A DNA stretch of 64,000 nucleotides from positions 62,001 through 126,000 of the forward strand of contig CAIKND010000221.1 of the NCBI GenBank assembly GCA_903828675.1, given 5' to 3'. Below the pieces are notes generated by a model that was given only the letters and a program-made list of their open reading frames with translations, searched no databases and was not told the origin of the DNA. The translations under genes were made by a program, and so were the position numbers. Positions 38,345 to 64,000 of this stretch are shown here, piece after piece. This stretch comes from an uncultured Acidobacteriaceae bacterium. GTDB lineage: Bacteria > Acidobacteriota > Terriglobia > Terriglobales > Acidobacteriaceae. Numbering within the stretch: position 1 is the stretch's first letter; every line of letters begins with the position of its first letter.

Positions 38345-38390
38345 CAGCATCAGCCACCAGTTGTGCTTTCCATGCTGCGGATGGGCTACA

Positions 38391-38468
38391 GCAATTCCAG
38401 GATTGGTATACCTCGAAGGCAACCTCGCCCGAATTCTGCCAGGGTACGGTAATTCTGGTTTTGCTCTA
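38391..38468. repeat. MITE-like element, copy B (internally deleted)
   Basis: GCAATTCCAGGATTGGTATACCT ... CTGCCAGGGTACGGTAATTCTGGTTTTGCTCTA, end coincides with a stop codon. Confidence 0.75.
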
Positions 38469-39158
38469 AATGTTCTGGGAAACCGCTGTCCCTTCGCAAT
38501 GCGTTACATCGCTTCGGTAATAGCAGAACGGCGCATCCGGAATCTCCCACCATACCTCCAGGCGATGCGCCACGCGCATGCCGTTCCAAATGCGGAAGTC
38601 GCTGCCCCTTCCTTCCCACTTGGTATCCACTGCGTCTCTGCCCACCATGCGCGGCCGTATCGTGTGACACGAGGTCGGCTCGCCATCCGCTCCGATCTCA
38701 AAATCGACCGCAGCCCCGGTAGGGTCCGCTGAGTCCCGCACACGCAACACAGACTCAGCCACCGCGTTCCACTCCAGTGAAGCGTGATTGACAATCGCTG
38801 CCGGGCAGAGCATCAGCGAGCTTAGGTAACGTTGCACCTCGCCGCGATCGAGCTCCGGCCCGCGCGTGGCCTTCTTCAGCGTCAACAAGCCCGCCAGTCG
38901 GGACATCGCGATCCCGTGCCCGCCTTCATACGCGTCGGTGATCACAATGCCGCTGGTCCGCGCATCCCAGCGAAACTCGCTGAGTCTCGTCTGAAAGGTC
39001 AACTCGGCGGTAAAGGACATCCACCGCGACTCCTCTGACGCGCGCATTTCTCCCTTTTCAGATATCCGCACAGCCTGCAAGCCGCGCGCCGCTGCCTCCC
39101 CCTCAGGGAGCAGGAAGCCTGTGAGTCGTGCGAGCAGCACTGCTGTTTCATGATTCAT
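38466..39158 (-). CDS. DUF6544-like hypothetical protein
   Basis: Internal ATG at 39158; conserved-looking ORF to TAG at 38466. Confidence 0.6.
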   Translation of the reverse strand: MNHETAVLLARLTGFLLPEGEAAARGLQAVRISEKGEMRASEESRWMSFTAELTFQTRLSEFRWDARTSGIVITDAYEGGHGIAMSRLAGLLTLKKATRGPELDRGEVQRYLSSLMLCPAAIVNHASLEWNAVAESVLRVRDSADPTGAAVDFEIGADGEPTSCHTIRPRMVGRDAVDTKWEGRGSDFRIWNGMRVAHRLEVWWEIPDAPFCYYRSDVTHCEGTAVSQNI

Positions 39159-39434
39159 AGAGGCAGGATCATAACACCGCGTCGCCATCCATGGCTGCCA
39201 CCAGGCTTGCACTCCGATAGATCTTGCCGAGGAGCAGCGTGGAATCCCTCGTTTCTGGCGCGCAGCGCTACTAAAGTATTTGAAGATGATGCGAGAGCGA
39301 CCGCCAAGCCGCAGGCGCCATGAGCAAAACCACGTGAGGGAAGTATCGCTGAAAATCCAACCCCAATGCCCGTCCGGCGCCATCATCCCCTACCCACAGC
39401 AGTGTCATCCTTGAACACAGTGAAGGATCCGCGG

Positions 39435-39851
39435 ATGCCTTTGAAAGTTTCACAGGGTCCTTATTTCCGCTCTGCCGACAATCCGTCCGGGGCGCAGGTT
39501 GACGGGCAAGCCGCGCAATCACCACAATTGCCATTGTTCCCTGAAATCGGTGACTTGAGGTTCTTATCGATGGACGATTCGTCTCAGCACGTTATATCTC
39601 CCCTTTCGCTTGTGATGGTTGTCAGAGTGACAAGCGAAGAGCCGGATTGGGGTGGCTACGAGGGGCGAGTATTTCGGATCGGCTACTACAACGGAAACGA
39701 TGGCCTGGATTGCGTTTGGCTCGTCAATGATGATGGACAATACCAGGAGACGGTTAATCAGGGGATGATCAGGACCCACTTCGAGATACTGCAGCGCAGT
39801 CACGAGTCTGATCTCTACGGAGTAGACAGACCCATAATTGGACCGCGTTGA
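39435..39851 (+). CDS. Small hypothetical protein
   Basis: ORF with ATG at 39435; no family recognised. Confidence 0.35.
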   Translation: MPLKVSQGPYFRSADNPSGAQVDGQAAQSPQLPLFPEIGDLRFLSMDDSSQHVISPLSLVMVVRVTSEEPDWGGYEGRVFRIGYYNGNDGLDCVWLVNDDGQYQETVNQGMIRTHFEILQRSHESDLYGVDRPIIGPR

Positions 39852-39945
39852 GTCTTTGCGGACGAGTAACCGCCAACTCGTCTCCAACCCGTTTCTCGGG
39901 TTACAGATGGATGGGCGACCATCCGCTCAATTGGCACATCGCTCT

Positions 39946-39987
39946 GTGCCCCATCCATTCGCCTTGCTTTTGGCGAATGGGTGGGAC
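39946..39987. repeat. GTGCCCC-type covarying hairpin, copy 4
   Basis: GTGCCCCATCCATTCGCC ttgctttt GGCGAATGGGTGGGAC. Confidence 0.7.
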
Positions 39988-40290
39988 AGCAACAAACAAA
40001 TCCTCGTGCTTTTCCATACCCTAAGGGTCAAGCCCAGTCATTCATAGCGCCTCGCCCCACCATGAAATGACAAAAACGCACCCGATTTTCACGTCGCTGA
40101 ATTGAAAGAACTTACCCTTAGTTCTCACTGCAGAGAATTACCGCACAAAGGCGCACAATCTTTATAGGTCATGCAAAAACTCAAATCGCTGCCTTCCAAC
40201 GGATGTGGAGGCGCATGCCCACCAGAGGCCCCACCCCCTCCCTACCCTCCCCCCTCCTGTGACGCCACATTGCCCAGGAGGCGATGCCAT

Positions 40291-40404
40291 GGCAATTCCA
40301 GGATTGGAATACCTTGAGGGCAATTGACGAAGTGTAAGCGGCCATCTGGGAACGGCGACAGCGCGTGATTTCTGCCAGGGTAGGGAAGTCCCGGAATTTT
40401 TCTA
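40291..40404. repeat. MITE-like element, copy C
   Basis: GGCAATTCCAGGATTGGAATACCTTG ... CTGCCAGGGTAGGGAAGTCCCGGAATTTTTCTA, end coincides with a stop codon. Confidence 0.75.
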
Positions 40405-40899
40405 GCTGTTGCCGTTTTCAAGTGCTGCGGTGTTCTGGCAATGCTCCCGCGCCGTCTCCAGCAAGCCGACTAATTGAGCCAGTTCCAGTCCGCTCATGTG
40501 CCCCAGCATTTCCCGCGGGACCCGTTGAATGACGGGGTCCATCGCCTGCAGTAGCTCTAGCCCCGCTTCGCTTATCTGGGTCCAGACCACGCGCCGGTCA
40601 TGCTTGTCGCGCTGCTGGCGGATCAGTTTGAGCGCCTTGAGTCTGGCCAGCAACCGGGTAATGTCCGGTTCGGCGGTGATCATGCGGCCGCCTATAGCCG
40701 CGCAGGTGAGCCCGTTGGGCTGTGCGCCGCGCAGAATTCGCAGCACGTTGTACTGCGTTGCGGTCACGCCCCAGTTGCGCGTCTTGCGATGAAACGCACG
40801 CTGCAACGCGTCGGAGGTACGTAGCAGATTTAGAAACGCCTCTTCTTCCACACTCGAAAAAGGAGGCTCTTGAACGATTTCGAGTTTCAAGCTGGACAT
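40402..40899 (-). CDS. MarR-family transcriptional regulator
   Basis: QYNVLRILRGAQPNGLTCAAIGGRMITAEPDITRLLARLKALKLIRQQRDKHDRRVVWTQISEAG. Confidence 0.9.
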   Translation of the reverse strand: MSSLKLEIVQEPPFSSVEEEAFLNLLRTSDALQRAFHRKTRNWGVTATQYNVLRILRGAQPNGLTCAAIGGRMITAEPDITRLLARLKALKLIRQQRDKHDRRVVWTQISEAGLELLQAMDPVIQRVPREMLGHMSGLELAQLVGLLETAREHCQNTAALENGNS

Positions 40900-40979
40900 T
40901 GACTTTCTCCCGGCCGGCAGCCGCGAACGAAAGTAAGGTCAGCCGGCATGCTGCGAACTGACCTCACCTGTGGCTCCGC

Positions 40980-41555
40980 CTACTGCTTGGCTACATCCAG
41001 ATCGATGTTCAGCTTCACGTCGTCGCCCACCATGGCGGCAGGGAACTTCGTCCCGATACCGAAAGCAGCGCGGCTAATGGTCGTGGAAGCAGAGAACCCG
41101 GCGTGCTGCTTGTGGTCCATGCCCTCAACCGGTCCAGTCGGTCCTTCAACTGTAAGCACCACCGGCTTGGTCACGCCGTGCAATGTAAAGTTGCCGGTCA
41201 CAATCAAATTGTTCCCGCTCTTCGCCACGCTGGTGCTCACAAAGGTGGCCGTGGGAAAGTTGGCGACATCAAAGAAGTCAGGGGTCTTCAGGTGGTTATT
41301 GCGCGCATCCTCACCCGTGTCAATTGTCGAAATGTCGATAGTGGCCTTCACCGTGGACTTGGTTACATCGGCCTGGTCGTACACAAGCGTGGCGGCTATC
41401 TTGCCGAATCGGCCATGCACGTTGGAGATCGTCAGATGGGTGACGCTAAAATCAACTTCGCTGTGAACCGAGTCGGAGACCCAGGTCGAGGCTTGCGCCA
41501 TGGCTAGGGGAGCCGCCAGCGCCAGAATTCCAGTCACAATTGCCAAACGTTTCAT
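40980..41555 (-). CDS. YceI-family protein
   Basis: Signal peptide; STWVSDSVHSEVDFSVTHLTISNVHGRFGKI. Confidence 0.9.
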   Translation of the reverse strand: MKRLAIVTGILALAAPLAMAQASTWVSDSVHSEVDFSVTHLTISNVHGRFGKIAATLVYDQADVTKSTVKATIDISTIDTGEDARNNHLKTPDFFDVANFPTATFVSTSVAKSGNNLIVTGNFTLHGVTKPVVLTVEGPTGPVEGMDHKQHAGFSASTTISRAAFGIGTKFPAAMVGDDVKLNIDLDVAKQ

Positions 41556-41864
41556 ATTTGATATTCCTTTCGGTACAGGGCCTGAGGGCCGAATTGGGGT
41601 TTGAGGGGAAGCAAACGCCTCGCCATTTGTGCATGGAAACAAGTAAGCCTACCCGTTTACATTGCGAATCTCTTCTCTGCAAATAAGATGTTGCCGCCAA
41701 GGTATTCGTTGCAACAAATATTTCTGCGGGTCGAGATTGGCACGTTTCGGTGGATCAATATCACGGCCAGCGTTGTCCTGAATGTTTCCCATAAAGGAAC
41801 AGAATCCGCTTCGTCGCTCACCGCGACAGGCCGGCCGTCGTTTGGGTCTGATATCCTCCCGCCT

Positions 41865-43112
41865 ATGTCCGTGCTAGCTCCGTTTCGCCAACTCAACAGT
41901 CCGCAGCGCCACGCCTTCGTGGCCTCGTTTCTTGGCTGGACACTCGATAGCCTTGATTTCTTTCTGCTTATCTTCTGCGTGAAGGCGATTGCCGGAGAGT
42001 TCCATACCCAGCCCTCGGCGGTGCTGGGAGCAGTTTTCATGACGCAGGCGTTTCGGCCCGTGGGCGCTCTTCTCTTCGGCCTCCTTGCCGATCGTTATGG
42101 GCGCCGCCCCGTATTAATGTTCAACATTCTCAGCTTCTCTGTGATTGAACTGGCCTGCGCCTTTGCGCCTTCGCTAAGCGTCCTGCTGGTGCTCAGGGCT
42201 TTGTTCGGAATTGCCATGGGTGGCGAGTGGGGAGTGGGTGCGGCTCTGACCTTCGAGTCGCTGCCGACGGAAGGCCGCGGTGTATTCTCTGGCATTCTCC
42301 AGGAGGGCTACGCGCTGGGGTCGATTCTCGCCTCGGCGGCCTTCGCGCTCTTCTTTCAACACATTGGCTGGCGAGGGTTGTTCATTCTCGGCGCCATGCC
42401 TGCCATCCTGGTTTTCTATGTCCAGGCCAGGGTGGCGGAGTCGCCGGTCTGGCTTGCCGCGGCTGCGAAGCGCAGGTCGCGGGCCCTATTGCCCGTCAAT
42501 TCTGCCGCGCCGTTGATACCCAAGAATCTACTGGCCTTTCTGCCTACGTTCCTGTTTCTGATACTGCTGATGACGGCCTTCATGAGTTTCTCCCATGGCA
42601 CGCAGGATGTGTATCCGACCTTCCTTGCCGTGCAGGCAAAGCTTTCCCCACAGACCATAGGCATTATCGGAGTCCTTTATGGCTTCGGCTCCATTGCTGG
42701 CGGCTTTGTGGTAGGGGCGCTGTCTGAAAAATGGGGTCGCAAGCGAGCTATTGTGACTGCTGCGCTCTTGGCCATTCCAGTGATTCCGCTGTATGCCTAT
42801 GGGCATTCTGCGATTTCGCTGGGGGTGGGTGCGGTGCTGATGCAGTTTATGGTGCAGGGCGCCTGGGGCGTGGTTCCCGCTTATCTAACGGAACTTTCGC
42901 CGGCGGCGGTGCGTGCCACCGCACCGGGCTTGGCCTACCAGTTGGGAGGTCTCCTTACTTCATGGAACGGCAAGGGACAGGCGCTGGCGGCTGAGCGTTG
43001 GGGCAACTATCCGGCGGTCCTGGCGATTACCGTCATTGTTGTGGCGGTTACGCTGGCGGGACTGGCGCTGCTGGGCCGCGAGGCAAAGGGCATGGACATG
43101 AGCGACGCGTAA
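41865..43112 (+). CDS. MFS transporter
   Basis: LADRYGRRPVLMFNILSFSV, many TM segments. Confidence 0.85.
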   Translation: MSVLAPFRQLNSPQRHAFVASFLGWTLDSLDFFLLIFCVKAIAGEFHTQPSAVLGAVFMTQAFRPVGALLFGLLADRYGRRPVLMFNILSFSVIELACAFAPSLSVLLVLRALFGIAMGGEWGVGAALTFESLPTEGRGVFSGILQEGYALGSILASAAFALFFQHIGWRGLFILGAMPAILVFYVQARVAESPVWLAAAAKRRSRALLPVNSAAPLIPKNLLAFLPTFLFLILLMTAFMSFSHGTQDVYPTFLAVQAKLSPQTIGIIGVLYGFGSIAGGFVVGALSEKWGRKRAIVTAALLAIPVIPLYAYGHSAISLGVGAVLMQFMVQGAWGVVPAYLTELSPAAVRATAPGLAYQLGGLLTSWNGKGQALAAERWGNYPAVLAITVIVVAVTLAGLALLGREAKGMDMSDA

Positions 43113-43199
43113 TGCCCTGGCCGACGCCATCGATCGCGAACCGACCCGTAACCTTTGCGTCATATCCATTCCTATTCATGCAACTTAGAATGAGTTGTA

Positions 43200-44210
43200 A
43201 TGACCCTCGCATCGGCTGAGAAGATCGCTATTGTCGCCATCGGGCGCAACGAGGGCGAGCGTCTCAAGAGTTGTCTTAGCGCGGCGTTTGCAGGCTGCGA
43301 AACTGTGGTTTACGTGGACTCGGGTTCTCAGGACGCGAGCGCGAGCTTTGCGCGGTCGGCGGGTTGTCACGTGGTGGAACTCGATCCCGCGCGGCCCTTC
43401 AGTGCGGCGCGCGCTCGTAACGAAGGCTTCGCCTGTGCAATGGAACATGCCCCCGACGCGGCCTTAATCCAGTTTGTGGATGGCGACTGCGATCTGGCCG
43501 AGGGCTGGTTGCGGCAAGCCAGAGCCGTACTCGCCGACAGAAGCGATGTGGGCATGGTGCGCGGCCAGCTCCGCGAGATTAACCCGGAGGCTAGTGTCTA
43601 CAACCGCTTGTGCGATTTGGAGTGGCGGCAAACGCCCGGGGAGATTGGAGCGTGCGGCGGCATCTTCATGGTCCGGACGGAGATCTTCAAGGCCGTGGGT
43701 GGATTCCGGCCTGATGTGATTGCGGCAGAGGACGATGAGTTCTGCATACGCGTGCGGGGGCTGGGCTCGAAGATTCTGATGATCGACGCACCCATGGCCA
43801 GCCACGATGCGGCCATGAGGCACTTTAGCCAGTGGTGGCGCAGAGCAAGGCGGGCCGGTCACGCCTATGCGCAGGTTGCGGCTTTGCACGGCAGCGGAGA
43901 AGATCGCTATTTCGTCGCCGAGCGCCGCAAGATTTGGATTTGGGGACTGGCGCTGCCGGCCGTGGCTCTGCTTCTTGCGCCCGTTACATACGGCATCTCC
44001 CTCGCGGCCCTGTTGGGTGTCTATCTACTGCAACTGGCCCATATCTGCGGTGGAGTAAGCAAGCGCGGCTGGAAAGCAAAGGACGCATGGACCTACGCCT
44101 TCTTTTCGGTGATTTCAAGATTCCCAGGGTTGCAAGGCTTGATCGGCTACCGATGGCGGCAAGTTCGAGGCCAAACGCCAGAGATCATTGAATACAAGAG
44201 GAACGCATGA
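43200..44210 (+). CDS. Glycosyltransferase family 2
   Basis: KIAIVAIGRNEGERLKSCLSAAFAGCETVVYVDSGSQDAS; FVDGDCDLAEGWL. Confidence 0.85.
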   Translation: MTLASAEKIAIVAIGRNEGERLKSCLSAAFAGCETVVYVDSGSQDASASFARSAGCHVVELDPARPFSAARARNEGFACAMEHAPDAALIQFVDGDCDLAEGWLRQARAVLADRSDVGMVRGQLREINPEASVYNRLCDLEWRQTPGEIGACGGIFMVRTEIFKAVGGFRPDVIAAEDDEFCIRVRGLGSKILMIDAPMASHDAAMRHFSQWWRRARRAGHAYAQVAALHGSGEDRYFVAERRKIWIWGLALPAVALLLAPVTYGISLAALLGVYLLQLAHICGGVSKRGWKAKDAWTYAFFSVISRFPGLQGLIGYRWRQVRGQTPEIIEYKRNA

Positions 44211-46393
44211 ACGATACGACCCACACCTCGCCCAACCAGGCAAACGGGGATAGATACTTGTCCGGCACATCAGAGTCCTCGTTGAAACGCCGCGTGGCGT
44301 TGGTGGGTGCGGGCTACATCGCGGACTGGCATGCGAAGTGCATTGCGTCCGTGGCCGATGTGGAGCTGGTGGCGGTGTGCGATCTGTCCCTGTCGAGAGC
44401 TCAGGCATTGGCGGAGAAATATGGCATAGCTAAGGTGTATGGGACGCTCGAAACCATGCTTGCCGAAGAAAAGCTTGATGCAGTGCATATCCTGCTGCCT
44501 CCGCACCGGCATTTTGAGGCTGCGCGCGCGGCGATTGAAGCCGATGTGGATGTGTTTATGGAAAAGCCCATGTGCGATTGCGCGACCGGCTGCGAAGAAC
44601 TGGCACGGCTGGCCTCCGAGCGTGGCGTGCGATTGGGCGTGGGACACAACTTCCTTTTCTCTGAGCCTTACGAGCAGTTGCGGAGAGATGTACGCAGCGG
44701 CGTTCTGGGGCGCATCGACCAGGTGACGATCACGTGGAACCGCTTTCTGCCGCTGGCGGCATTTGGACCCTTCGACACGTGGATGCTGCTCGACCCGCGC
44801 AATATCATGCTCGAGATTGGATCGCACTCGGTAGCGCACATGCTTGACCTGGTGGGCGAGCCGGAAGAGATGACGGTGCGTGCATCGAATCCCGTCGAAC
44901 TGCCCACCGGACGCAGCTTCTATCGTCATTGGCAGGTGAATGGCTTCAAGGGCAAAACGGTTGTGGAACTGCGCTTTTCGTTTGTGCCGGCCTTTGCCGA
45001 ATACACCATTCATGTGCGCGGGTCGCTGGCGGCAGGCACGGTGGATTTCGAGCGCAACACCTATATGCTTCACGAGCACCGGCCAAGCGATCCGGACTTT
45101 GAAAACTACGCCATGATTGCGAACCAGGCGAAGAGCCTCAAGCAGCAGGCGCGGCGGACTTTGCGGAAGTACGTGCTGTCGAAATTGCACCTCTGCGCCC
45201 GCGGCACGGCTTATGGCGAGAGCATTTCACGGGCGATGGACGCTTTCTACAATGCGGAAACTCTGGACGAACGCATCGATGGACGCAATGCGGCCAAGAT
45301 CATCGGTGTTTGCGAACAGATCGGAGCATTGGCGAAGCTGCCGCCGGAGACGGTTGCGCCCAAGGGAAGTCCAATTTCGACCAGCGACGCTGCAACTCCG
45401 CGTGTTCTGGTGCTGGGCGGAACGGGTTTCATCGGCAAGGAGTTGGTTAGGCAATTGATCGAATCGGGCTCATACGCACGGCTGCTGGTTCGGAATGCGG
45501 CAAGTATGCCTGAAGCTTTGCGGACACAAGTGCACTGCCTGAGCGGCGACTTGATGAACAGGGACTCGCTGCTGCGCGCAATGGACGGCGTGGAATGCGT
45601 TCTGCACCTGGCGCGGGCGAATGTAAAGAGCTGGGACGACTACCAGAAATACGAGATCGAAGCGACCAGGCAGGTGGCCGAATGCGCTCTGGAGGCGGGT
45701 GTCAAGCGGCTGGTCTACACGGGCACAATCGACTCGTATTATGCGGGTGCGGGGGCCGGGGCCATTACCGAGGCGACGCCTCTCGATCCGCGGATTGCAA
45801 GCAGAAATCTTTATGCGCGGGCCAAGGCCGTTTCTGAGGAATTATTGGTAATAATGCACCGGGAGCGGGGATTGCCGGTTGTGATTCTGAGGCCGGGTAT
45901 TGTGATTGGGCGCGGTGGAAATCCTTTCCATTGGGGCGTGGGCATGTGGTGGCACGATGCGGTGTGCCAGGTTTGGGGTGAAGGCAGGAATAAGCTCCCG
46001 CTGGTGCTGGTGGAAGATGTGGCCGCGGGGCTGATGGCCGTGATCGGGAAGCCCGGCATCGAAGGCCGGTCATTCAATCTTGTGGCGGACCCCTGCCTGA
46101 GCGCGCAGGAGTATCTGGATGAACTGGATCGCGCAGCCGGAATGCGTATTCAGCGGCACGCTACGCCAATTCTCAAGTTCTATTGCATGGACATGGTCAA
46201 GTGGGCGGTCAAGGTTGCGGTTCGTCACCCGGAGCGGCGACTGCCCTCGTATCGCGACTGGGAGAGCAGGACGCAGCTGGCCCATTTCGACTGTACGGCG
46301 GCGAAGGACGATCTGGGCTGGCGGCCCGTGAGCGAGCGCGAAGAACTGGTACGCCGTGGGATTGAAGAGCCGCTGGCTGATTTCTACAAGTAA
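44207..46393 (+). CDS. Fusion of Gfo/Idh/MocA oxidoreductase and NAD-dependent epimerase
   Basis: RVALVGAGYIADWHAKCIASV...EKPMCD and second half RVLVLGGTGFIGKELVRQLIESG; ATGA overlap with upstream GT2. Confidence 0.85.
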   Translation: MNDTTHTSPNQANGDRYLSGTSESSLKRRVALVGAGYIADWHAKCIASVADVELVAVCDLSLSRAQALAEKYGIAKVYGTLETMLAEEKLDAVHILLPPHRHFEAARAAIEADVDVFMEKPMCDCATGCEELARLASERGVRLGVGHNFLFSEPYEQLRRDVRSGVLGRIDQVTITWNRFLPLAAFGPFDTWMLLDPRNIMLEIGSHSVAHMLDLVGEPEEMTVRASNPVELPTGRSFYRHWQVNGFKGKTVVELRFSFVPAFAEYTIHVRGSLAAGTVDFERNTYMLHEHRPSDPDFENYAMIANQAKSLKQQARRTLRKYVLSKLHLCARGTAYGESISRAMDAFYNAETLDERIDGRNAAKIIGVCEQIGALAKLPPETVAPKGSPISTSDAATPRVLVLGGTGFIGKELVRQLIESGSYARLLVRNAASMPEALRTQVHCLSGDLMNRDSLLRAMDGVECVLHLARANVKSWDDYQKYEIEATRQVAECALEAGVKRLVYTGTIDSYYAGAGAGAITEATPLDPRIASRNLYARAKAVSEELLVIMHRERGLPVVILRPGIVIGRGGNPFHWGVGMWWHDAVCQVWGEGRNKLPLVLVEDVAAGLMAVIGKPGIEGRSFNLVADPCLSAQEYLDELDRAAGMRIQRHATPILKFYCMDMVKWAVKVAVRHPERRLPSYRDWESRTQLAHFDCTAAKDDLGWRPVSEREELVRRGIEEPLADFYK

Positions 46394-46551
46394 TGCTCAA
46401 ATCCGTTGCGGCCAGGCAAGGCTGGTATCTGACAAGCAAAAGGTGGCTGGAGGGAAGCGCACTTTACCAATACGGAAAATATATCTATGTCTTATAAGCG
46501 AGTGATAAGATGGCTGGCGGATCGCGCGCAATGCGCGAAGGAGAGTCAAGT

Positions 46552-54550: not shown

Positions 54551-54587
54551 CCACCCGGATGAGTACAGACGGAAAGGGAAACTGTCG

Positions 54588-55088
54588 ATGAGCCCTGTCT
54601 TCTATCTAATTTCAGCCATGACGGTGGCCGGCGGTCTGGCGGCGGTGCTGCTTAAGAACACGGTGCATTGCGCGCTAGCCCTCACCGTGGCCTTTGCCGG
54701 ACTGGCGTTGCTGTTCCTGCAGCTTGACGCGCAGTTCGCCGGCTTTGCGCAGATTCTGGTTTATATTGGCGCGGTCGCCATCCTGGTTGTGTTTGCGATT
54801 CTGCTCACGCGCGGTTCTGAAACTCCCAAGGACGGCGTTTACAGCCGCAACTGGCCCATCGGCCTGGTGATTGCAGCGGCGGTGTTTTCAGTGCTGGGTT
54901 GGGCGGTGCTGCAAAGCGCGCGTGTTCTGCCCAATGAGACGGCCGTGCCCAAGGTGACGGTTCTGGATATCGGCAACGCCCTGGTGGGCCGCTACGTTTT
55001 GCCGCTTGAAATTGTGGCCCTGCTGCTGACTGCCGCCACCATCGGCGCGGTCATCGTGGCCCTGCATGAGAAAGAAGGGGCCAAATGA
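54588..55088 (+). CDS. nuoJ: NADH-quinone oxidoreductase subunit J
   Basis: NuoJ-like hydrophobic ORF; QFAGFAQILVYIGAVAILVVFAILLT; start taken at MSPVF (ATG 54588), ORF track start is 54546. Confidence 0.9.
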   Translation: MSPVFYLISAMTVAGGLAAVLLKNTVHCALALTVAFAGLALLFLQLDAQFAGFAQILVYIGAVAILVVFAILLTRGSETPKDGVYSRNWPIGLVIAAAVFSVLGWAVLQSARVLPNETAVPKVTVLDIGNALVGRYVLPLEIVALLLTAATIGAVIVALHEKEGAK

Positions 55089-55396
55089 CGCCGCTTACTG
55101 GATATCTTCTGGTCGCAGCCTTGCTGTTCGCCATCGGACTGGCCGGCGCGCTCACACGGCGCAACGCCATCCTGGTGCTAATCGGCATTGAACTGATGCT
55201 GAACGCGGCCAATCTCAATCTGATCGCCTTCTGGCGTTACGGGCCTCATCCGGAGGCGCTTACCGGCATGATGTTCGCCATCTTCTCCATCGCCGTGGCT
55301 GCGGCTGAAGCTGCGGTAGGACTTGGACTGGTGATTTCCATTCATCGCCACGCGCACACCACCGATCTGGACAACATGAACAGGATGAAGGGGTGA
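55085..55396 (+). CDS. nuoK: NADH-quinone oxidoreductase subunit K
   Basis: RRNAILVLIGIELMLNAANLNLIAF; ATGA overlap with nuoJ. Confidence 0.95.
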   Translation: MTPLTGYLLVAALLFAIGLAGALTRRNAILVLIGIELMLNAANLNLIAFWRYGPHPEALTGMMFAIFSIAVAAAEAAVGLGLVISIHRHAHTTDLDNMNRMKG

Positions 55397-55400
55397 GCGC

Positions 55401-57500
55401 ATGATGATGCAAGAAGAAGCAGCAGTCGCGTTTTCTCCGCTCACACAGTGTTATGGGGGATCGTCGTTTGCGGCCCATATGCTGTGGCTGATTCCCGCAC
55501 TTCCGATCATTGCCGCAGGTGCAATTGCTCTGCTGAAGCAGCCCCGCCGCAAAACTTCCGCCACCCTGGCTATCGGTTCTCTGAGTTTCTCGCTGCTGCT
55601 CTCGCTGGTGGCATTTGGCCAGGTTTTGATGGATTGGGCGTATGGAGACTACGGAAGCCGCGAGACCGTAAACCTCACCTGGTTCCAAGTGGGCGCCATC
55701 CACGTAGACCTCGGCTGGGTGCTCGATCCGCTTTCGGCCATCATGCTGGTCATGGTCAGCTTCGTCGGCCTGCTCATCTTTATCTACTCGACCGGCTACA
55801 TGGCCCACGACGAGAACTACACGCGCTTCTTCTGCTTCCTCTCGCTGTTTGCAGGAGCCATGCTGGGTGTAGTGATCTCGAACAGCCTTCTGCTCCTGTT
55901 TATGTGCTGGGAGTTGGTTGGCCTTACATCGTATCTGCTCATCGGCTTCTGGTATCAGAAGCCATCGGCTGCAGCCGCCGCCAAGAAGGCTTTCCTCACC
56001 ACGCGCGTCGGCGACATTTTCTTTCTGCTAGGCATGGTCTGGTTGTTCGCGCAAACCGGCACGCTGCTCTTCTATAACAACGGTGGCGGCTCCATGGAGC
56101 ACGTCGCTCTGAGCGCACTGCTGGCGCAGCCTGCCGCACTCGGCCTCACCGCAGCGGGCGCAATTGGCCTGCTGATCTTTGCCGGAGCAGCGGGCAAGAG
56201 CGGCCAGCTTCCCCTGCACGTCTGGCTACCGGACGCGATGGAGGGCCCCACGCCCGTCTCCGCTCTCATTCACGCAGCCACCATGGTTGCCGCTGGCGTC
56301 TACCTCATCGCCCGCGTTTATCCGCTGATGCAGGCCGGAGCACTTGCCGGCGGCACCACGACAGCCCTCACGGTCGTCACCTGGGTGGGCGCGTCAACAG
56401 CCGTTTTTGCCGCGCTCATCGCCGTTGCGCAGAACGACATCAAGCGCATCCTGGCCTACTCCACCGTTTCGCAGCTCGGCTACATGATGGCCGGGCTGGG
56501 CATGGGCGGCGTTGCTGTAGGCATGTTCCACCTGATCACGCACGCCTTCTTCAAGGCGCTGCTCTTTATGGGCGCGGGCTCGGTGATTCACGGCTGCCAC
56601 GAGGAGCAGGACATCCGCCGCATGGGCGGCCTCAAGGCCGATATGCCGCTCACTTTCATCACCTACTCCATAGGTATGCTGGCCCTCTGCGGCTTTCCTA
56701 TCTTTTTCTCTGGCTTCTGGTCAAAGGACGGCATTCTCGAAGCCGCGCAGCACTGGAGCGTGGCCAAGGCTCCGTTTTACATGCTCGTCTTTGGCGCGCT
56801 TCTGACCGCGTTTTACATGACCCGCCAGGTTGCGTACGTCTTCTTTGACCACTGGCGCGGCCACAAGCCGGCGCACGAAAGCCCAGCGGTAATGACGGTT
56901 CCGCTGGCGATTCTGGCCTTCTTCGCAATCACGCTGGGCGCGCTCGGCACTCCGGTCTGGCCGTGGTTCCGTGCCTTCCTGGATGGACGCGCGGCAGGCT
57001 TCGACCTGCACGGTTTTGCCGAGCCGGGCCTGCTGGCGCTGATGACGACATCGACGCTGGTTGTATTTCTAGGGCTCGGAGTGGGTTGGCGGCTCTACGG
57101 CAACAAATCCACCAGGCCTGAAGCCAAGGATGCACTGGAAAATGCAGTTCCCTGGGTCTGGGCTGTACTCCGCGACCGTTTCTATGTGGATGAGCTATAC
57201 GGAGTGACGGTGATTGCGTTTTATGCGTGGTGGGGACGGGTTGCCGACTGGCTCGACCGCCATGTTTGGGGCGGCGCGGTTACTGGAGTGGCCTGGTCTT
57301 TTGGCCTGTGGGCGCGGCTGAGCCGCTTTCTCGACACCAACGTGGTGGACGGCAGCTTCGACAAAGGCTGCGAAGAGCTTTCAGCCGGCGGCGGACTGCT
57401 CTCGCGGGTGCAGAGTGGCCGCGTCCAAGCCTATCTCAGAATCCTGGCGCTCGCCGTTGTGGCGCTGGCAGCAGTTTTGATCTGGAGCGCCCGGCCATGA
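55401..57500 (+). CDS. nuoL: NADH-quinone oxidoreductase subunit L
   Basis: CWELVGLTSYLLIGFWYQKPSAAAAAKKAF; GAAGKSGQLPLHVWLPDAMEGPTPVSALIHAATMV. Confidence 0.95.
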   Translation: MMMQEEAAVAFSPLTQCYGGSSFAAHMLWLIPALPIIAAGAIALLKQPRRKTSATLAIGSLSFSLLLSLVAFGQVLMDWAYGDYGSRETVNLTWFQVGAIHVDLGWVLDPLSAIMLVMVSFVGLLIFIYSTGYMAHDENYTRFFCFLSLFAGAMLGVVISNSLLLLFMCWELVGLTSYLLIGFWYQKPSAAAAAKKAFLTTRVGDIFFLLGMVWLFAQTGTLLFYNNGGGSMEHVALSALLAQPAALGLTAAGAIGLLIFAGAAGKSGQLPLHVWLPDAMEGPTPVSALIHAATMVAAGVYLIARVYPLMQAGALAGGTTTALTVVTWVGASTAVFAALIAVAQNDIKRILAYSTVSQLGYMMAGLGMGGVAVGMFHLITHAFFKALLFMGAGSVIHGCHEEQDIRRMGGLKADMPLTFITYSIGMLALCGFPIFFSGFWSKDGILEAAQHWSVAKAPFYMLVFGALLTAFYMTRQVAYVFFDHWRGHKPAHESPAVMTVPLAILAFFAITLGALGTPVWPWFRAFLDGRAAGFDLHGFAEPGLLALMTTSTLVVFLGLGVGWRLYGNKSTRPEAKDALENAVPWVWAVLRDRFYVDELYGVTVIAFYAWWGRVADWLDRHVWGGAVTGVAWSFGLWARLSRFLDTNVVDGSFDKGCEELSAGGGLLSRVQSGRVQAYLRILALAVVALAAVLIWSARP

Positions 57501-59026
57501 ACGAATTTTCGACCGGAATTCCTTTATTGTCGCTGTTGACCGGGTTGCCCCTCATCGGGGCGGCTATTGCGCTCTGGTCCGGCAAACACGCGCGTGCCGT
57601 GGCCCTGATCACAACCATGTCCAGCCTGATGCTGGCCTTGCTGGTTTGGACCCGCCTGCCCGTGAGCGGCGGCATGGGACTGGTTGAGCAGTTGGCCTGG
57701 GCGCCTTCTCTTGGCATCGAATATCACCTCGGCGTCGATGGCTTGGGCGCGCTGATGCTGGTGCTCTCGGCGATTGTCACCCTCATGTCCGTCGATGCGG
57801 CGCACCGCGTGCATCACCAGCCCAACCTCTACTTCGCACTGGTGCTGGTGCTCGAGTCCGGCCTGTTCGGCTCCTTCACGGCGCTGAACTTCTTCCACTG
57901 GTTCTTGTTCTGGGAACTGAGCCTCATCCCTGCCTTCTTTCTCATCAAGCTCTGGGGCGGCCCCCGGCGTGGCCCGGCGGCTACGCAGTTCTTCGTCTAC
58001 ACCATGGCCGGGTCGGTGGCGCTGTTGGTTGCGTTCCTCGCCATCTTTGTTTCCACCGGCAGCATGGACTTCGGCCACTTGACCCTGCTCGCATCCACCG
58101 GCGAACTTGAGCAAATGGTCACGGCGCATCTCGGCCCGGTCAGCTTGTGGCTGGCCATCGGCGTCCTCGCCGGATTCGCGGTCAAAGTCCCCATGTTTCC
58201 GTTCCACACCTGGCTGCCCGCCGCGTACGCTGAGGCGCCTTCTCCGGTAACCATGCTGCTCACCGGCGCCATGTCCAAGATGGGCGTCTACGGATTGCTG
58301 CGGATCGCCATTCCGCTCTTCGGCCCGCAAATCGCCCAGATCCGCACGCCGCTTCTCGTCCTGGCCGTCGCTACTATCGTGATGGGCGCGTGGGCTGCGG
58401 TGGCGCAGAAAGACCTCAAGCGCGTCTTCGCCTACTCCTCGGTAAACCACCTGGGCTATTGCCTGCTTGGCATCTTTGCGCTGGCGGTTCCGTCTGCTGG
58501 CGCGGCGGCACAGGCCAGTCAGGCGGCTGCGCTCAACGGCGTCATCCTTCAGATGTTCAATCACGGCATCACGGCGGCGGCGCTCTTCTGGTTTGTCGCC
58601 ATGATCCAGATGCGCTCCGGTGGCGGCCGCGGCATCGACGACTTCGGCGGCCTGCGCAAGCCCGCTCCGGTCTTCGCCGGTCTCATGGGCATTGCGCTCT
58701 TTTCGTCCCTCGGCCTGCCCGGACTCAACGGTTTTGTCGGCGAGTTCCTGATCTTTCGCGGCGTCTTTCCGCTGGCGTGGGTGGCGGCTACGGTTTCCAT
58801 TCTCGGCCTGCTGGTCACGGCGGCTGTCATTCTCACCGTCATTCAAAAGGTCTTCAGCGGTCCCGTCCCCGAGCGGTGGGCCGCCTTTCCCGATCTGCAC
58901 CACGGTGAGCGCCTGGCGCTGGCCCCGGTCATCGGCCTCATGCTCCTCCTGGGCCTTGTGCCCCAAGTCATTGTGGACAGCGTGAACCCTACGGTTCTTA
59001 ACCTGCTGGCGCACTGGAGATTTTAG
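57497..59026 (+). CDS. nuoM: NADH-quinone oxidoreductase subunit M (first copy)
   Basis: FWELSLIPAFFLIKLWGG; FAVKVPMFPFHTWLPAAYAEAPSPVTMLLTGAMSKMG. Confidence 0.92.
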   Translation: MNEFSTGIPLLSLLTGLPLIGAAIALWSGKHARAVALITTMSSLMLALLVWTRLPVSGGMGLVEQLAWAPSLGIEYHLGVDGLGALMLVLSAIVTLMSVDAAHRVHHQPNLYFALVLVLESGLFGSFTALNFFHWFLFWELSLIPAFFLIKLWGGPRRGPAATQFFVYTMAGSVALLVAFLAIFVSTGSMDFGHLTLLASTGELEQMVTAHLGPVSLWLAIGVLAGFAVKVPMFPFHTWLPAAYAEAPSPVTMLLTGAMSKMGVYGLLRIAIPLFGPQIAQIRTPLLVLAVATIVMGAWAAVAQKDLKRVFAYSSVNHLGYCLLGIFALAVPSAGAAAQASQAAALNGVILQMFNHGITAAALFWFVAMIQMRSGGGRGIDDFGGLRKPAPVFAGLMGIALFSSLGLPGLNGFVGEFLIFRGVFPLAWVAATVSILGLLVTAAVILTVIQKVFSGPVPERWAAFPDLHHGERLALAPVIGLMLLLGLVPQVIVDSVNPTVLNLLAHWRF

Positions 59027-60550
59027 ATGTTGGCGTGGACGATCTATCTCTCGTTTGCCGGGGCGCTGCTCCAGGCTCTCCTGCCCAAAGGCAGGAATGA
59101 CCTGGCGCGCTGGCTGGCGCTGGCCTTTGCCGTAGCTGGCCTCGCGCTTGCTGTGGCAGGCTTTGTCGCCGGCATGGGGCAGGGCCGCGTCATCATCATT
59201 GACGCTCCCTGGGTGCCCACGATGGGCATTCACTACCTGCTCGCCGCCGATGGCATCAGCCGTGTACTGGTGCTGCTCACCGGCCTGGCCGCGGTCGCCG
59301 GAGTCCTTTTCAGCTGGAATATCGAACTGCGCACCAACGAGTTCTTCGCCTTCTTCCTCGCTCTTATCGGCGGCGTCTACGGCGTCTTTCTCAGCTTCGA
59401 CCTCTTTCTGCTGTTTGTGTTTTACGAAATCGCCATCGTCCCCAAGTACTTCCTGATCGCCATCTGGGGCTCGACCCGCAGAGAATACGCTGCCATGAAG
59501 CTGGCGCTTTACTCCTTCGCCGGATCGGCCATGGTGCTGATCGGCTTGCTTGCCGCGTATGCCACTTCGGGCAGCCATTCGACCAGCCTGATTGATCTTG
59601 CCGCCTATGCGCATTCAGGGGGCCTGCCTGTCAGCTTCCAGATGTGGTGCTTCCCGCTGGTCTTCACCGGCTTTGCAATTCTGGCCGGCATGTGGCCTTT
59701 CCACACCTGGGCGCCCACTGGCCACGTCGCCGCTCCCACTGCCGCTTCCATGCTGCTCGCCGGAGTGGTGATGAAACTCGGCGCTTACGGTTGCCTGCGC
59801 GTCGGCATTTGGCTTTTTCCGCACGGCCTCGACTCCTGGGGATTCACCCTGCTCGGCTTCATCGGCTCGTGGCGCGACGTGTTCGCCCTGCTGGCCGTCA
59901 TCGGCATCGTCTACGGCGCACTGGTAGCCCTGGCGCAGACCGACTTTAAATTCGTCATCGGCTACTCCAGCGTCAGCCACATGGGCTTTGTGCTGCTTGG
60001 CCTTATGACGCTGAATCAGATTGGCGTCACCGGCGCGGTCATGCAGATGTTCTCGCACGGCATCATCGCCGGACTGCTCTTCGCCATCGTGGGCCGCATC
60101 GTCTACGAGCGCACCCACACCCGCCAGTTGGACGAGCTTGAAACCATGCATCTGGCCAAGCGTTTGCCCTTTGCCGCCTGGGCCTTTGTGGTGGCCGGAA
60201 TGGCCTCGATGGGCCTGCCCGGCTTCTCCGGCTTCGTCGCCGAGTTGCAGGTGTTGGTGGGAGCGTGGACCGCCAAACCCTGGTGGACCTTCGCTGCCGG
60301 AGTAGGCATTGTGGTCGGCGTGGCTTACACCTGGCGCGCGTTGCAAAAAGCGTTCTTCAGCGACAGACTGCCCACGGCGGACGAACATCCAAAGACCGGC
60401 TGGCACAACCTCGGCGCCATCACATGGCCTGAGTATGCCGGCGTTGCGCTGCTTACCGGAGTCAGCCTCTTCGTCGGCCTCTATCCAAGAATTCTGCTCG
60501 ACACCATCGAACCAGCCGTGAAAGCCCTGCTAGCGGGAGGCGGACAATGA
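59027..60550 (+). CDS. nuoM: NADH-quinone oxidoreductase subunit M (second copy, M')
   Basis: VFYEIAIVPKYFLIAIWGS; FAILAGMWPFHTWAPTGHVAAPTAASMLLAGVVMKLG. Confidence 0.92.
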   Translation: MLAWTIYLSFAGALLQALLPKGRNDLARWLALAFAVAGLALAVAGFVAGMGQGRVIIIDAPWVPTMGIHYLLAADGISRVLVLLTGLAAVAGVLFSWNIELRTNEFFAFFLALIGGVYGVFLSFDLFLLFVFYEIAIVPKYFLIAIWGSTRREYAAMKLALYSFAGSAMVLIGLLAAYATSGSHSTSLIDLAAYAHSGGLPVSFQMWCFPLVFTGFAILAGMWPFHTWAPTGHVAAPTAASMLLAGVVMKLGAYGCLRVGIWLFPHGLDSWGFTLLGFIGSWRDVFALLAVIGIVYGALVALAQTDFKFVIGYSSVSHMGFVLLGLMTLNQIGVTGAVMQMFSHGIIAGLLFAIVGRIVYERTHTRQLDELETMHLAKRLPFAAWAFVVAGMASMGLPGFSGFVAELQVLVGAWTAKPWWTFAAGVGIVVGVAYTWRALQKAFFSDRLPTADEHPKTGWHNLGAITWPEYAGVALLTGVSLFVGLYPRILLDTIEPAVKALLAGGGQ

Positions 60551-62082
60551 ACTACCCAGGGTTCTATCCTGACCTCTTCCGCGTCACGCTACCGGAGACC
60601 GCGCTCGAAGTTGCGGCGCTGTTGGTGCTGGTTATCGATCTCGGCTTTCTGCGCAAGGCCGCGCTCAAGGTGCGCGTGGCAGTTGCGGCACTCATCGGCA
60701 TCGCCGGGTGCGGCGCGGCATTGTGGGCACTGCAATGCACCGCCCGGTCCGGACTCAGCTTCGATGGCGATGTGCTTCTGGCCCAGGGCGGATACACTCA
60801 GGTCGCTCAGACCGGAATCCTCGCCCTCACCATCCTTACCCTGCTGCTCTTCATCGGTTCCGCCTTCACCCGTCATGCAGGCGAATACGTCTCCGTAGTG
60901 CTGATGGCTGCGGCGGGCGGCCTGATCGTGTCTTCCGCGCAGGACCTGCTGGTGATTTTCATCGGTTTGGAACTGCTCTCGCTGGGCCTCTACATCCTTA
61001 CCGCCTTCGCGAAAAGTTCAGGCAAGAGCGCCGAAGCGGCGATGAAGTACTACCTCTTCGGCGGCATGTCGGCGGCGTTTCTGCTCTTCGGCTTTAGCTA
61101 TCTCTACGGCATCTCCGGCTCAACGAACCTGAACAAAATTCTTCTGGCGTCGTTCTATTCGAGTGCTTCAGGCGGCGCGCCCTTGCTGTATGTTGCGCTG
61201 GTCCTGATTGCCGCCGGGCTCGGTTTCAAGGTGGCCGCCGTTCCTTTTCACCTATGGGCGCCCGACACTTATGAAGGTGCTCCCGCTCCCGCCGCGGCCT
61301 TTATCGCGTCGGTATCAAAGGTGGCTAGCTTCGCTTTGCTCATTTCCATCAGCACTGCGGCAGTGCACCTTTTCGATGGCGTTCACGAATTGCGATTCGT
61401 TGCGTTCACTTTGGGGCCTCCACCGAAATATCTGGGCTTGTGGATTCCCTGGTCCCTGATTCTGACGGTTCTATCCGCGGCATCCATGGTGGTCGGCAAT
61501 CTGGCCGCGCTTGCGCAAATCAGCGTTCGCCGCCTGCTCGCCTACTCCGCCATCGCGCACGCAGGCTATATTCTGCTGGGCCTTGCCTTCTTCTCCCATT
61601 CGAATGCGAGCGCCAACGCGATCCTCTACTACATCCTCACCTACGGCCTCACCACCATCGGAGCTTTCGGCGTTGTGGATGTCGTCCAGCGCGCCACTGG
61701 CAGCGACCGCCTCGATGCCTTCCTCGGCCTGCACAAGCGCAACCCGCTTCTCGCCGCGGTGCTGCTGGTGCTGTTCCTCTCGCTCGCCGGAATCCCGCCG
61801 CTGGTTGGCTTCTGGGCCAAGTTCAACCTCTTCGCCGCGGTGCTGGGCGTTTCCGCCGGGCCGGTCGCCTTCGCCCTCGTCGCCTTGGCCGTGGCTCTCA
61901 GCGCCGTCTCGCTCTACTACTATTTGCAGGTCCTCAAGCGCGCTTACGTCATGCCCGCGGTGGACGAGACGCCCATCAAGGCTCATCCAGTCACGATGGC
62001 CGTGTTGCTTGCCATCGCCGCCGCAGTGGTCGTCTTCGGCTGCTTCCCGGCACTCCTCCAAAACTGGATCGCGGGCTTCTGA
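60547..62082 (+). CDS. nuoN: NADH-quinone oxidoreductase subunit N
   Basis: FIGLELLSLGLYILTAFAKSSGKSAEAAMKYYLFGGMSAAFLLFG; FKVAAVPFHLWAPDTYEGAPAPAAAF. Confidence 0.95.
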   Translation: MNYPGFYPDLFRVTLPETALEVAALLVLVIDLGFLRKAALKVRVAVAALIGIAGCGAALWALQCTARSGLSFDGDVLLAQGGYTQVAQTGILALTILTLLLFIGSAFTRHAGEYVSVVLMAAAGGLIVSSAQDLLVIFIGLELLSLGLYILTAFAKSSGKSAEAAMKYYLFGGMSAAFLLFGFSYLYGISGSTNLNKILLASFYSSASGGAPLLYVALVLIAAGLGFKVAAVPFHLWAPDTYEGAPAPAAAFIASVSKVASFALLISISTAAVHLFDGVHELRFVAFTLGPPPKYLGLWIPWSLILTVLSAASMVVGNLAALAQISVRRLLAYSAIAHAGYILLGLAFFSHSNASANAILYYILTYGLTTIGAFGVVDVVQRATGSDRLDAFLGLHKRNPLLAAVLLVLFLSLAGIPPLVGFWAKFNLFAAVLGVSAGPVAFALVALAVALSAVSLYYYLQVLKRAYVMPAVDETPIKAHPVTMAVLLAIAAAVVVFGCFPALLQNWIAGF

Positions 62083-62107
62083 CACCCTCCCTCACAGAGA
62101 AATCTCC

Positions 62108-62150
62108 GTGCCCCTTCCATTTCGCGCACTCTGCGAAATGGAAGGGATGG
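62108..62150. repeat. GTGCCCC-type covarying hairpin, copy 5
   Basis: GTGCCCCTTCCATTTCGC gcactct GCGAAATGGAAGGGATGG; 14-bp perfect stem. Confidence 0.7.
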
Positions 62151-62196
62151 CAGCCAACTATACTTTCGGACCGGGCTGCGGACGTAGCGTTGCCTT

Positions 62197-63318
62197 CTAC
62201 ACCACCCGCCGAATCCCTGGCAGCCGCACCAGCGGATCGGACAGCAGCCAGGTGGCTGCAATCGCCAGCAAGCCCACGACACCAAACTTCATCAGCGCCG
62301 GTGCAACCCAGCCGTGCAGCAGCAAACTGATGCCCACCAGCACCGGCGGGTGAAGGATGTAGACCGCGTAGGCCCGCCGATTGAGCCACGACCAAAAGGC
62401 CGAGGGCTGGTTCATCCGCTCGCGGAAGATCAACAGCCACAGCGCAATCAGGCCCCAGGCCACGAACGGCTCCCACAGCGCATAAAGAACAGCCGTCCAT
62501 GAAAAGCCACCTGAAAAGTTCGACTTCCCCGGACCAGCCAGAGCGCGCGCAAGGGCAATGCCCACCGGTATCAGAGGCCAGGCGACCAGCAAACCCACGA
62601 TTCCGGCTCGCGCATTTCTCCAGTCGAGCTGCCTGAGCCAGTCGAATCGCCAGGCGGCTATGCCCGCCGCGAACAAAAAGATATAGGTGGCAAAATAGCC
62701 GAGCTGCAGCCCGATCACGTTCACACCGGTGGGAACAAATTGGCGAATTGCCAGCGCTGCTGCGCCGGTTGCCAGGGCGCTCAGCAACCACCAGCGTCCT
62801 GAAGGAACAGGCTTGGGCGTACGCGCGGACTGCGCCAGCGAAGAGCCAGTGAGCGCCCGCCAGGCGCAGTAGGCGAGACTGAAGATCAGCAGAGCCTGCG
62901 CAAACCAGAGCGGTCCGTTCATAAACCGCTTGTGAAGCCAAAGCCATGAAATCGTGGGCCAGAAACCGTGACCTTGCGCGAAAGTGACAATACCCGCGGT
63001 CAACGGCCCGAGAAGCAGACCGAAGGCCAGCAACGGCAGGCCCAGGCGCAGAAAGCGGTCGCAAATAAAGCGCGCATACCCCTTGCGTTCCAGCGAGGCT
63101 GGCGTAAAGTAGCCTGCCAGCAGGAAGAAGAAGCCCATGAAGTAGGCCTGATTGGTTGTGCAAAACAGAATAAGGGCGGTGCAGGAGGGCGAGCCGGAAG
63201 GCTCAACTTCGCGCCAGAACCAGCCGCCAATAGCGCCATAGGTGATGGCCGTGTGGTGCAGGATGACCAGGGTAGTCATCACGCTGCGGAGGCGGTCGAC
63301 GTAGAACTCCCGTTGGGA
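62197..63318 (-). CDS. Acyltransferase family 3 membrane protein
   Basis: REFYVDRLRSVMTTLVILHHTAITYG; multi-TM. Confidence 0.85.
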   Translation of the reverse strand, partial: SQREFYVDRLRSVMTTLVILHHTAITYGAIGGWFWREVEPSGSPSCTALILFCTTNQAYFMGFFFLLAGYFTPASLERKGYARFICDRFLRLGLPLLAFGLLLGPLTAGIVTFAQGHGFWPTISWLWLHKRFMNGPLWFAQALLIFSLAYCAWRALTGSSLAQSARTPKPVPSGRWWLLSALATGAAALAIRQFVPTGVNVIGLQLGYFATYIFLFAAGIAAWRFDWLRQLDWRNARAGIVGLLVAWPLIPVGIALARALAGPGKSNFSGGFSWTAVLYALWEPFVAWGLIALWLLIFRERMNQPSAFWSWLNRRAYAVYILHPPVLVGISLLLHGWVAPALMKFGVVGLLAIAATWLLSDPLVRLPGIRRVV

Positions 63319-63366
63319 CATGAGACATTCTACGTTCGACCGCAGGCTCCGGTTCAATCGAAATTA

Positions 63367-63480
63367 TGGCAATTCCAGGATTGGTATACCTCTAAGGAAT
63401 TGCACAAAGTTGACGCGACCATTAGGGAGCGGCAACCTCGCATGAACTCTGCTAGGGTACGGTGATCCTGAATTGCTCTA
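63367..63480. repeat. MITE-like element, copy A (full length)
   Basis: GGCAATTCCAGGATTGGTATACCT ... AGGGTACGGTGATCCTGAATTGCTCTA; imperfect terminal inverted repeats; end coincides with tpiA stop. Confidence 0.75.
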
Positions 63481-64000
63481 GTACTTCACAATCGCCGCGA
63501 ACGAGTCCGGCTTCAGGCTTGCGCCGCCCACCAGGGCTCCGTCGATCTCTTCCTGGCCAATCAGCGAAGTCGCGTTGTCGGGCTTCACGCTGCCGCCGTA
63601 GAGAATGCGAACCGCCGCGGCCACTTCCGCACCCAGCAGCTTGGCCACTTCGGCGCGAATGATCTTGTGCGCGTCAACGGCCATTTCGGGCGTGGCGGTC
63701 TTGCCGGTGCCGATGGCCCAAACCGGCTCATAGGCAATCACGATCGGCGCAGCCATCTCGGCGGTGATACCCACCAGGGCTCCGGCGATCTGCGTCTTCA
63801 GCACGTCGGCGGTCTTGTCGGCTTCGCGCTCGGCCAGAACCTCGCCCACGCAAACCACGGGAACCACACCATGCTTTAGGGCCGTGTGCAGCTTCTTGTT
63901 GACAATCTCGTCGGTCTCGGCAAAGTACTGACGCCGCTCGGAGTGGCCAATCAGGGTATGCGTTCCGCCCACGGCCTTGAGCTGGTTCAGCGAGGTCTCG
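63478..64000 (-). CDS. tpiA: Triose-phosphate isomerase, 5' end beyond the window
   Basis: THTLIGHSERRQYFAETDEIVNKK; AYEPVWAIGTGKTATPE; GGSVKPDN. Confidence 0.95.
   Translation of the reverse strand, partial: ETSLNQLKAVGGTHTLIGHSERRQYFAETDEIVNKKLHTALKHGVVPVVCVGEVLAEREADKTADVLKTQIAGALVGITAEMAAPIVIAYEPVWAIGTGKTATPEMAVDAHKIIRAEVAKLLGAEVAAAVRILYGGSVKPDNATSLIGQEEIDGALVGGASLKPDSFAAIVKY

What the first reader, a model, noticed from the sequence alone, without database searches (positions are those of the whole stretch)
38388..63482. Three-copy MITE-like element whose terminus is the TAG stop codon of the adjacent gene each time
Copies at 38391-38468 (B), 40291-40404 (C) and 63367-63480 (A) share GCAATTCCAGGATTGG(T/A)ATACCT at one end and CTGC(C/T)AGGGTA(C/G)GG...TCTA at the other. 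The ends are imperfect inverted repeats: TAtgGCAATTCCAGGAT versus TAGAGCAATTC-AGGAT in copy A. In all three copies the terminal CTA is exactly the stop codon (TAG on the minus strand) of the neighbouring gene: DUF6544-like (38466), MarR (40402) and tpiA (63478). All three have the same orientation relative to the gene. No transposase is in the window. Inference: a non-autonomous TA-targeting element with stop-codon-specific placement, or a mobile 3'-UTR/terminator cassette.
Basis: partly seen in the sequence, partly recalled or inferred. Interest (0 to 1): 0.8.

Follow-up and report, generated by a model that had tools for sequence, protein, structure and literature searches.

The report
Jumping hairpin that spares stop codons
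Soil acidobacteria carry dozens of copies of a ~115-base hairpin of jumping DNA that often lands exactly inside a gene's stop codon and, because of how its ends are spelled, rebuilds that stop codon and so leaves the protein unharmed.

Summary
All three copies are at the stated places and each right end is the TAG stop of the neighbouring gene. They belong to a family with ~51 copies in this 6.4-Mb acidobacterial genome and others across its genus and family. It is a MITE-like mobile element: 113-117 bp from TA to TA, complementary 13-bp arms, insertion into YTAR (95%), TA duplication. Empty sites prove insertion: in larE-larC, over 20 relatives read straight through, while this genome has the element inside larE's TAG with the TA duplicated.

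Docking on stop codons is not universal: 10 of 51 copies here, 54 of 196 copies in 24 genomes (28%, against 12-17% of non-coding YTAR sites). Orientation at stops is strict, though: only ends spelling TAA/TAG face the gene. In this genome that is the right end (TAG); in relative G029 the left end (TAA). So stop docking is best explained by YTAR targeting, regeneration of the stop by the element's end, and selection. No stop-codon sensor or terminator cassette is needed.

Unusual: arms differ freely between subfamilies but stay complementary, around a conserved core. No mobilising transposase was found; IS5-like ISs share target and terminal bases. Precedents: ERIC, RUP, GTAG-REPs.

The parts
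38387..38468 (+). Copy B, internally deleted (82 bp TA to TA); left TA 38387-38388, right TA 38467-38468
38466..38468 (-). TAG stop of the DUF6544/DUF6920 gene, formed by the target TA plus the G of the element's right end
40288..40404 (+). Copy C, full length (117 bp), left TA decayed to CA
40402..40404 (-). TAG stop of the MarR-family gene at the right end of copy C
63365..63480 (+). Copy A, full length (116 bp); left TA 63365-63366 (original stop reads TAA on the minus strand), right TA 63479-63480
63478..63480 (-). TAG stop of tpiA at the right end of copy A; same last residue as tpiA of 29 relatives that lack the element
63369..63381 (+). Left arm GCAATTCCAGGAT of copy A (terminal inverted repeat)
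63465..63476 (+). Right arm ATCCTGAATTGC of copy A (complementary arm, one base lost)
63407..63437 (+). Conserved core hairpin AAGTTGACGCGACCATTAGGGAGCGGCAACC

Best explanation
The three copies are members of an old family of non-autonomous DNA elements (MITE type) of Acidobacteriaceae, 113-117 bp from TA to TA, recently amplified in some relatives. They insert into YTAR and duplicate the TA. One or both element ends begin with G or A next to the target TA (here TA|GAGC at the right end). An insertion into the TA of a TAA or TAG stop with that end facing the gene therefore rebuilds a stop codon at the same residue and is neutral. Insertions in the opposite orientation, or inside genes, are lost. 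YTAR sites are scarce in these GC-rich genomes and stop codons make up 12-17% of the non-coding ones, so stop docking is a common tolerated outcome. Shown: repeat family, target, TA duplication, empty sites, unchanged C termini, orientation rule. Inferred: a DDE transposase (IS5-like) moves them in trans, and selection causes the orientation rule.
For: 51 copies in the genome. Base before the left TA is C/T in 141 of 148 and base after the right TA is A/G in 147 of 156. TA-to-TA distance 113-117 in 190 of 196 copies. Near-identical recent amplification in G029 (58 copies, median identity 0.967). Empty site: the joined larE-larC flanks match many relatives through the junction, and this genome breaks exactly there; G022 reads GCA TAG CCGGCAGTTTAAAATT, this genome GCA TAG-element-TAG CCGAGCAGTTTAAAATC. 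tpiA of 29 relatives ends at the same residue with TAA/TAG/TGA and no element. Exact docking by end triplet: TAG 31 of 49 gene-facing, TAA 26 of 60, TAC 0 of 45, TAT 0 of 23. In this genome (scored full-length copies) docking uses the right end, 7 to 0; in G029 the left end, 14 to 1, the single right-end case being a variant with TAA there. IS5-family ISs in the same genomes sit in CTAG and begin TA-GAG or TA-GAA.
Against: No autonomous element with matching arms was found: 49 DDE and 30 Y1 loci carry no such ends, and the complete genome G357 holds only element pairs and no IS with these arms. The stop excess in this genome alone is weak (p=0.22; 0.011 with orientation counted). In G029 the wrong orientation would add only 4 residues, yet it was never seen, so selection alone may not be the whole story. 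Gene calls come from a home-made caller.
Confidence: 0.82

Rival explanations
1. True stop-codon targeting: the transposition machinery recognises stop codons (or terminating ribosomes or 3' ends) and orients the element there.
For: Stop docking is about twice the share of non-coding YTAR sites (54/196, p=2.5e-6). Orientation at stops is absolute, even in G029 where the wrong orientation would add only YGIF before a TGA.
Against: 72% of copies are elsewhere, including between divergent genes. The null assumes every intergenic insertion is tolerated, so purging of promoter insertions would inflate the stop share. The end that docks is simply the one that spells TAA/TAG, and it differs between species.
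Confidence: 0.12
2. Mobile 3'-UTR or terminator cassette: the hairpin is kept because it ends or stabilises the transcript of the docked gene.
For: Strong hairpin. In G029 and other relatives copies are enriched between convergent genes. Several relatives have a native hairpin and T-run behind tpiA at the place where this genome has the element.
Against: No U-tract is built into either end. Arms within this genome's main subfamily decay without compensatory changes (0 of 24 pairs). GT/TG 35 versus AC/CA 40 mismatches give no sign that one strand is selected as RNA. In this genome divergent positions are as frequent as expected.
Confidence: 0.06
3. REP/RAYT-type (HUH Y1) element: a tyrosine transposase mobilises a single-stranded hairpin, which would explain why arm sequence is free while pairing is kept.
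For: Arms vary freely but stay complementary. GTAG REPs often provide TAG stops to flanking ORFs, and Acidobacteria carry TIR-flanked Y1 transposases (PMC3733652). Y1 genes occur in 10 of 12 element-bearing genomes.
Against: Most of the 30 Y1 loci fetched carry their own, different hairpin TIRs, and none has a flanking pair of this family's ends. Two element-bearing genomes (G289, G036) had no Y1 match. The symmetric YTAR target with TA duplication is typical of DDE elements.
Confidence: 0.1

Closest known systems
ERIC / IRU / RU-1 elements of enterobacteria (PMC2759123, PMC2229807)
   Same: ~127-bp imperfect palindromes, TA at both ends, TA target duplication, intergenic, stable stem-loop, mobiliser unknown; one case removes a gene's normal stop codon
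   Different: No sequence similarity; ERIC fusions described there lengthen ORFs, whereas here the end rebuilds the stop; other phylum
RUP of Streptococcus pneumoniae, thought to be moved by IS630-Spn1 (PMC2229807, PMC3049150)
   Same: 107-bp TIR element, TA target, complementary ends
   Different: RUP arms match an IS of the genome; no such IS was found here; RUP sequence is uniform
IS5-family elements and MITEPsy1 (PMC3189936)
   Same: MITEPsy1 (100 nt) inserts at CTAG or YTAA; IS5-family ISs in these acidobacteria sit in CTAG and start TA-GAG/TA-GAA
   Different: MITEPsy1 duplicates 4 nt, this family only TA; subterminal arm sequences do not match the ISs found
GTAG REPs and TIRYT elements (PMC3733652)
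   Same: Palindromic repeats whose termini often supply the TAG stop of flanking ORFs
   Different: REPs are 20-40 bp with a GTAG tag next to Y1 transposases; here a 113-117 bp element with a YTAR target and no association with Y1 genes

Membership tests
MITE (bacterial, non-autonomous TIR element) | short, terminal inverted repeats, dispersed multicopy, no transposase of its own | tested here: met
   113-117 bp, 13-bp arms, 51 copies
MITE (bacterial, non-autonomous TIR element) | target site duplication shown against an empty site | tested here: met
   larE-larC empty sites in relatives, TA duplicated
MITE (bacterial, non-autonomous TIR element) | ends match an autonomous transposon | tested here: inconclusive
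   no match in 79 transposase loci or in the arm search of complete genome G357; other transposase families and genomes were not searched
ERIC family | sequence homology to the ERIC consensus | tested here: not met
   local alignment no better than shuffles
IS630-derived (RUP-like) | DDE_3 transposase with the same ends in the genome | tested here: not met
   3 DDE_3 loci in the genome without these ends; none in G029, G357, G158 or G036
IS5-derived | CTAG/YTAR target and terminal GA(G) next to the TA | tested here: met
IS5-derived | subterminal TIR shared with an IS5 element | tested here: not met
   L240 GAGGCTGTTATTAACTTT versus GAGCAATTCCAGGAT
REP/RAYT or TIRYT element | same repeat flanks a Y1 tyrosine transposase gene | tested here: not met
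   30 Y1 loci, mostly with other TIRs
Structured RNA family (Rfam) | match to a curated family | tested here: not met
   no match at gathering level in the window, nor at E<=1 in three loci

The most novel reading that the evidence does not exclude
A mobile-element family recognised by shape more than by arm sequence: across genomes (and within some) the 13-bp arms have drifted through at least 17 perfectly paired versions while length, YTAR target, GC step and core hairpin stay. The unidentified mobilising enzyme may read the folded hairpin, or each element may repeatedly copy one arm onto the other. It may also insert preferentially at stop codons in the harmless orientation.
Probability: 0.2. 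Interest if true: 0.75.

Novelty: new variant of a known kind. Interest (0 to 1): 0.5.

Why it matters
It shows, with empty sites and an orientation rule that flips with the spelling of the element's end, how a selfish element can use stop codons as harmless landing sites. It adds a MITE family to a phylum for which the literature searches here found no such description, and it poses a testable question: how can both arms of an inverted repeat change together while the core stays, with no matching transposase in sight? It also warns annotators that many 3' ends in these genomes are element-supplied.

Tried and rejected
Rfam match (none). RNA-structure selection: no compensatory change within the main subfamily, and strand-symmetric wobble counts, although arms covary between subfamilies. 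IS630 (DDE_3), IS5-type (DDE_Tnp_1) and Y1 transposase loci as autonomous partners: none carries the ends. Arm search of complete genome G357 for a long element: only MITE pairs. Four-base duplication (YTAR) as in MITEPsy1: rejected, because the first and last bases of the two flanking YTAR differ between sides in many copies. ERIC homology. Literature searches for this family in Acidobacteria found nothing. Distant members (G018, G036, G158, G289, G277) were found with a structure model that could also pick up unrelated long hairpins; I treat them as probable relatives because length, TA-NN-GC ends and docking agree.

Full report
Observation. Reading the sequence, copy B runs from TA 38387 to TA 38468 (82 bp, internally deleted), copy C from 40288 to 40404 (117 bp, its left TA now CA) and copy A from 63365 to 63480 (116 bp). 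Each right end reads GCTC-TA or a variant, and the CTA on the plus strand is the TAG stop of a minus-strand gene: DUF6544/DUF6920 at 38466, MarR at 40402, tpiA at 63478. The 16-base end GCAATTCCAGGATTGG has 161 matches (up to 3 mismatches) in the 6.4-Mb genome against 13 for the reversed control.

A genome-wide family. A profile of 24 copies finds 51 distinct copies in the genome and relatives in 27 of 35 other genomes of the genus searched, but in none of 24 genomes outside it. A broader model with structure finds probable relatives in 12 of 299 genomes of the class, in seven genera. In G029 58 equal-length copies have a median identity of 0.967, which points to recent amplification; in this genome the median is 0.787, which is older. 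Named database records with the core are Acidobacteriaceae, among them Terracidiphilus and Silvibacterium MAGs.

Anatomy. In 190 of 196 copies from 24 genomes the distance between the two flanking TA is 113-117 bp. Outside the left TA lies C or T in 141 of 148 cases, outside the right TA A or G in 147 of 156: the target is YTAR. Inside come two bases, then GC and an arm of about 13 bp, an inner TGTAYCC/GGRYACA pairing, and a core hairpin.

It moves. larE and larC are adjacent. In this genome an element lies exactly in larE's TAG. A query made of the two joined flanks matches many relatives straight through the junction (86% identity in G061, 85% in G022), while this genome's own sequence breaks there. 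G022 reads GCA TAG CCGGCAGTTTAAAATT; this genome reads GCA TAG, the element, then TAG CCGAGCAGTTTAAAATC. TA is duplicated, larE keeps its last residue, and the old TAG survives behind the element. For tpiA, 29 relatives end at the same residue with TAA, TAG or TGA and have no element there.

Stop codons. In this genome 10 of 51 copies dock on a stop codon; in the full set 54 of 196 do. Stop codons are 12.5-17.2% of the non-coding YTAR sites in the same stretches, so docking is about twice as frequent as a uniform choice would give (p=2.5e-6 overall; 0.22 in this genome alone). The orientation rule is the clearest result. Docking happens only with ends that spell TAG (31 of 49 gene-facing ends) or TAA (26 of 60), never with TAC (0 of 45) or TAT (0 of 23). 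This is partly true by definition, since a stop docked on TA must be TAR. The informative point is that genes hardly ever run into TAC/TAT ends at the equivalent site, and that the docking end differs between species according to its spelling: right end in this genome (7 to 0 among scored copies), left end in G029 (14 to 1; the one right-end case has TAA there). The rule needs no stop-codon sensor. The element's own first base completes the stop.

Not an RNA cassette, as far as can be tested. Within the main subfamily of this genome none of 24 predicted pairs shows a compensatory change. Over all copies, arm mismatches that would be wobble pairs on one strand (35) or on the other (40) are equal. 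In this genome copies lie between divergent genes as often as expected (14 of 38). In G029 and other relatives there is an excess between convergent genes, which fits selection against promoter damage as well as a 3'-end role. A terminator role remains possible for single loci: several relatives have a hairpin plus T-run behind tpiA where this genome has the element.

The odd part. Between subfamilies the arms differ strongly but stay complementary: in a 16-sequence alignment 9 of 13 arm pairs change on both sides and 96.6% of cells are paired, and the whole structure falls from 92% paired to 32-44% when the partner is slid. Without any alignment, 33 distinct arms match their own partner at 11.6 of 13 positions and other copies' partners at 7.5; 17 are perfect. 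The core is conserved within the genus. Ordinary MITEs inherit both arms and interior from one IS, so a conserved interior with drifting matched arms is unusual. Either a drifting transposase drags both ends along, or arms are copied onto each other during replication, or shape is read. I cannot decide.

Mobiliser. 49 DDE loci (DDE_3, DDE_Tnp_1) and 30 Y1 loci carry no such ends. The Y1 genes mostly have their own hairpin TIRs, like the TIRYT genes reported in Acidobacteria (PMC3733652). In the complete genome G357 the arm sequence occurs in element pairs and never as the ends of a longer IS. IS5-family ISs of these genomes share target and first bases: a 903-bp IS in this genome sits in CTAG and starts TA-GAGGCTG (DDE_Tnp_1 plus DUF4096), and an 866-bp IS present three times in G357 starts CTAGAATC. 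This makes an IS5-like enzyme the best guess, no more.

Comparison. It works like ERIC and RUP: a short palindromic element with TA ends and TA duplication (PMC2759123, PMC2229807). It is not ERIC by sequence. REPs of the GTAG type were already reported to supply TAG stops to neighbours (PMC3733652), so stop docking by repeats has a precedent. What is new here is the family, the YTAR rule, the orientation rule with its cross-species flip, and the drifting matched arms.

Noticed in passing
window 39947-39988: A 17-bp inverted repeat TGCCCCATCCATTCGCC / GGCGAATGGGTGGGACA upstream of copy C resembles the hairpin TIRs found beside Y1 transposase genes of relatives (GGTGCCCCA...): probably a REP/TIRYT-type repeat.
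   Followed up: partly
L413 (G082), larE-larC gap: G082 has what looks like a different, decayed member of the family a few bases behind larE's TAG: an independent insertion into the same gap.
   Followed up: no
G029:C388:5851-5963: In G029 a copy lies about 28 bp behind tpiA, the same gene that carries copy A here: an independent insertion near the same 3' end.
   Followed up: no
L105-L133, tpiA 3' flanks: Several relatives have a hairpin followed by a T-run behind tpiA that is not visible in this genome, where the element sits instead.
   Followed up: partly
L165-L192: Y1 transposase genes of these acidobacteria are flanked by several distinct families of hairpin TIRs (e.g. GCTGTGCCCCGTTCATCGCG, GGGTGCCCCAGGTCTCGA).
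   Followed up: no
L142, L155, L163, L311, L353: Five copies fill the whole gap between convergent genes, each end being the stop codon of one of them.
   Followed up: partly
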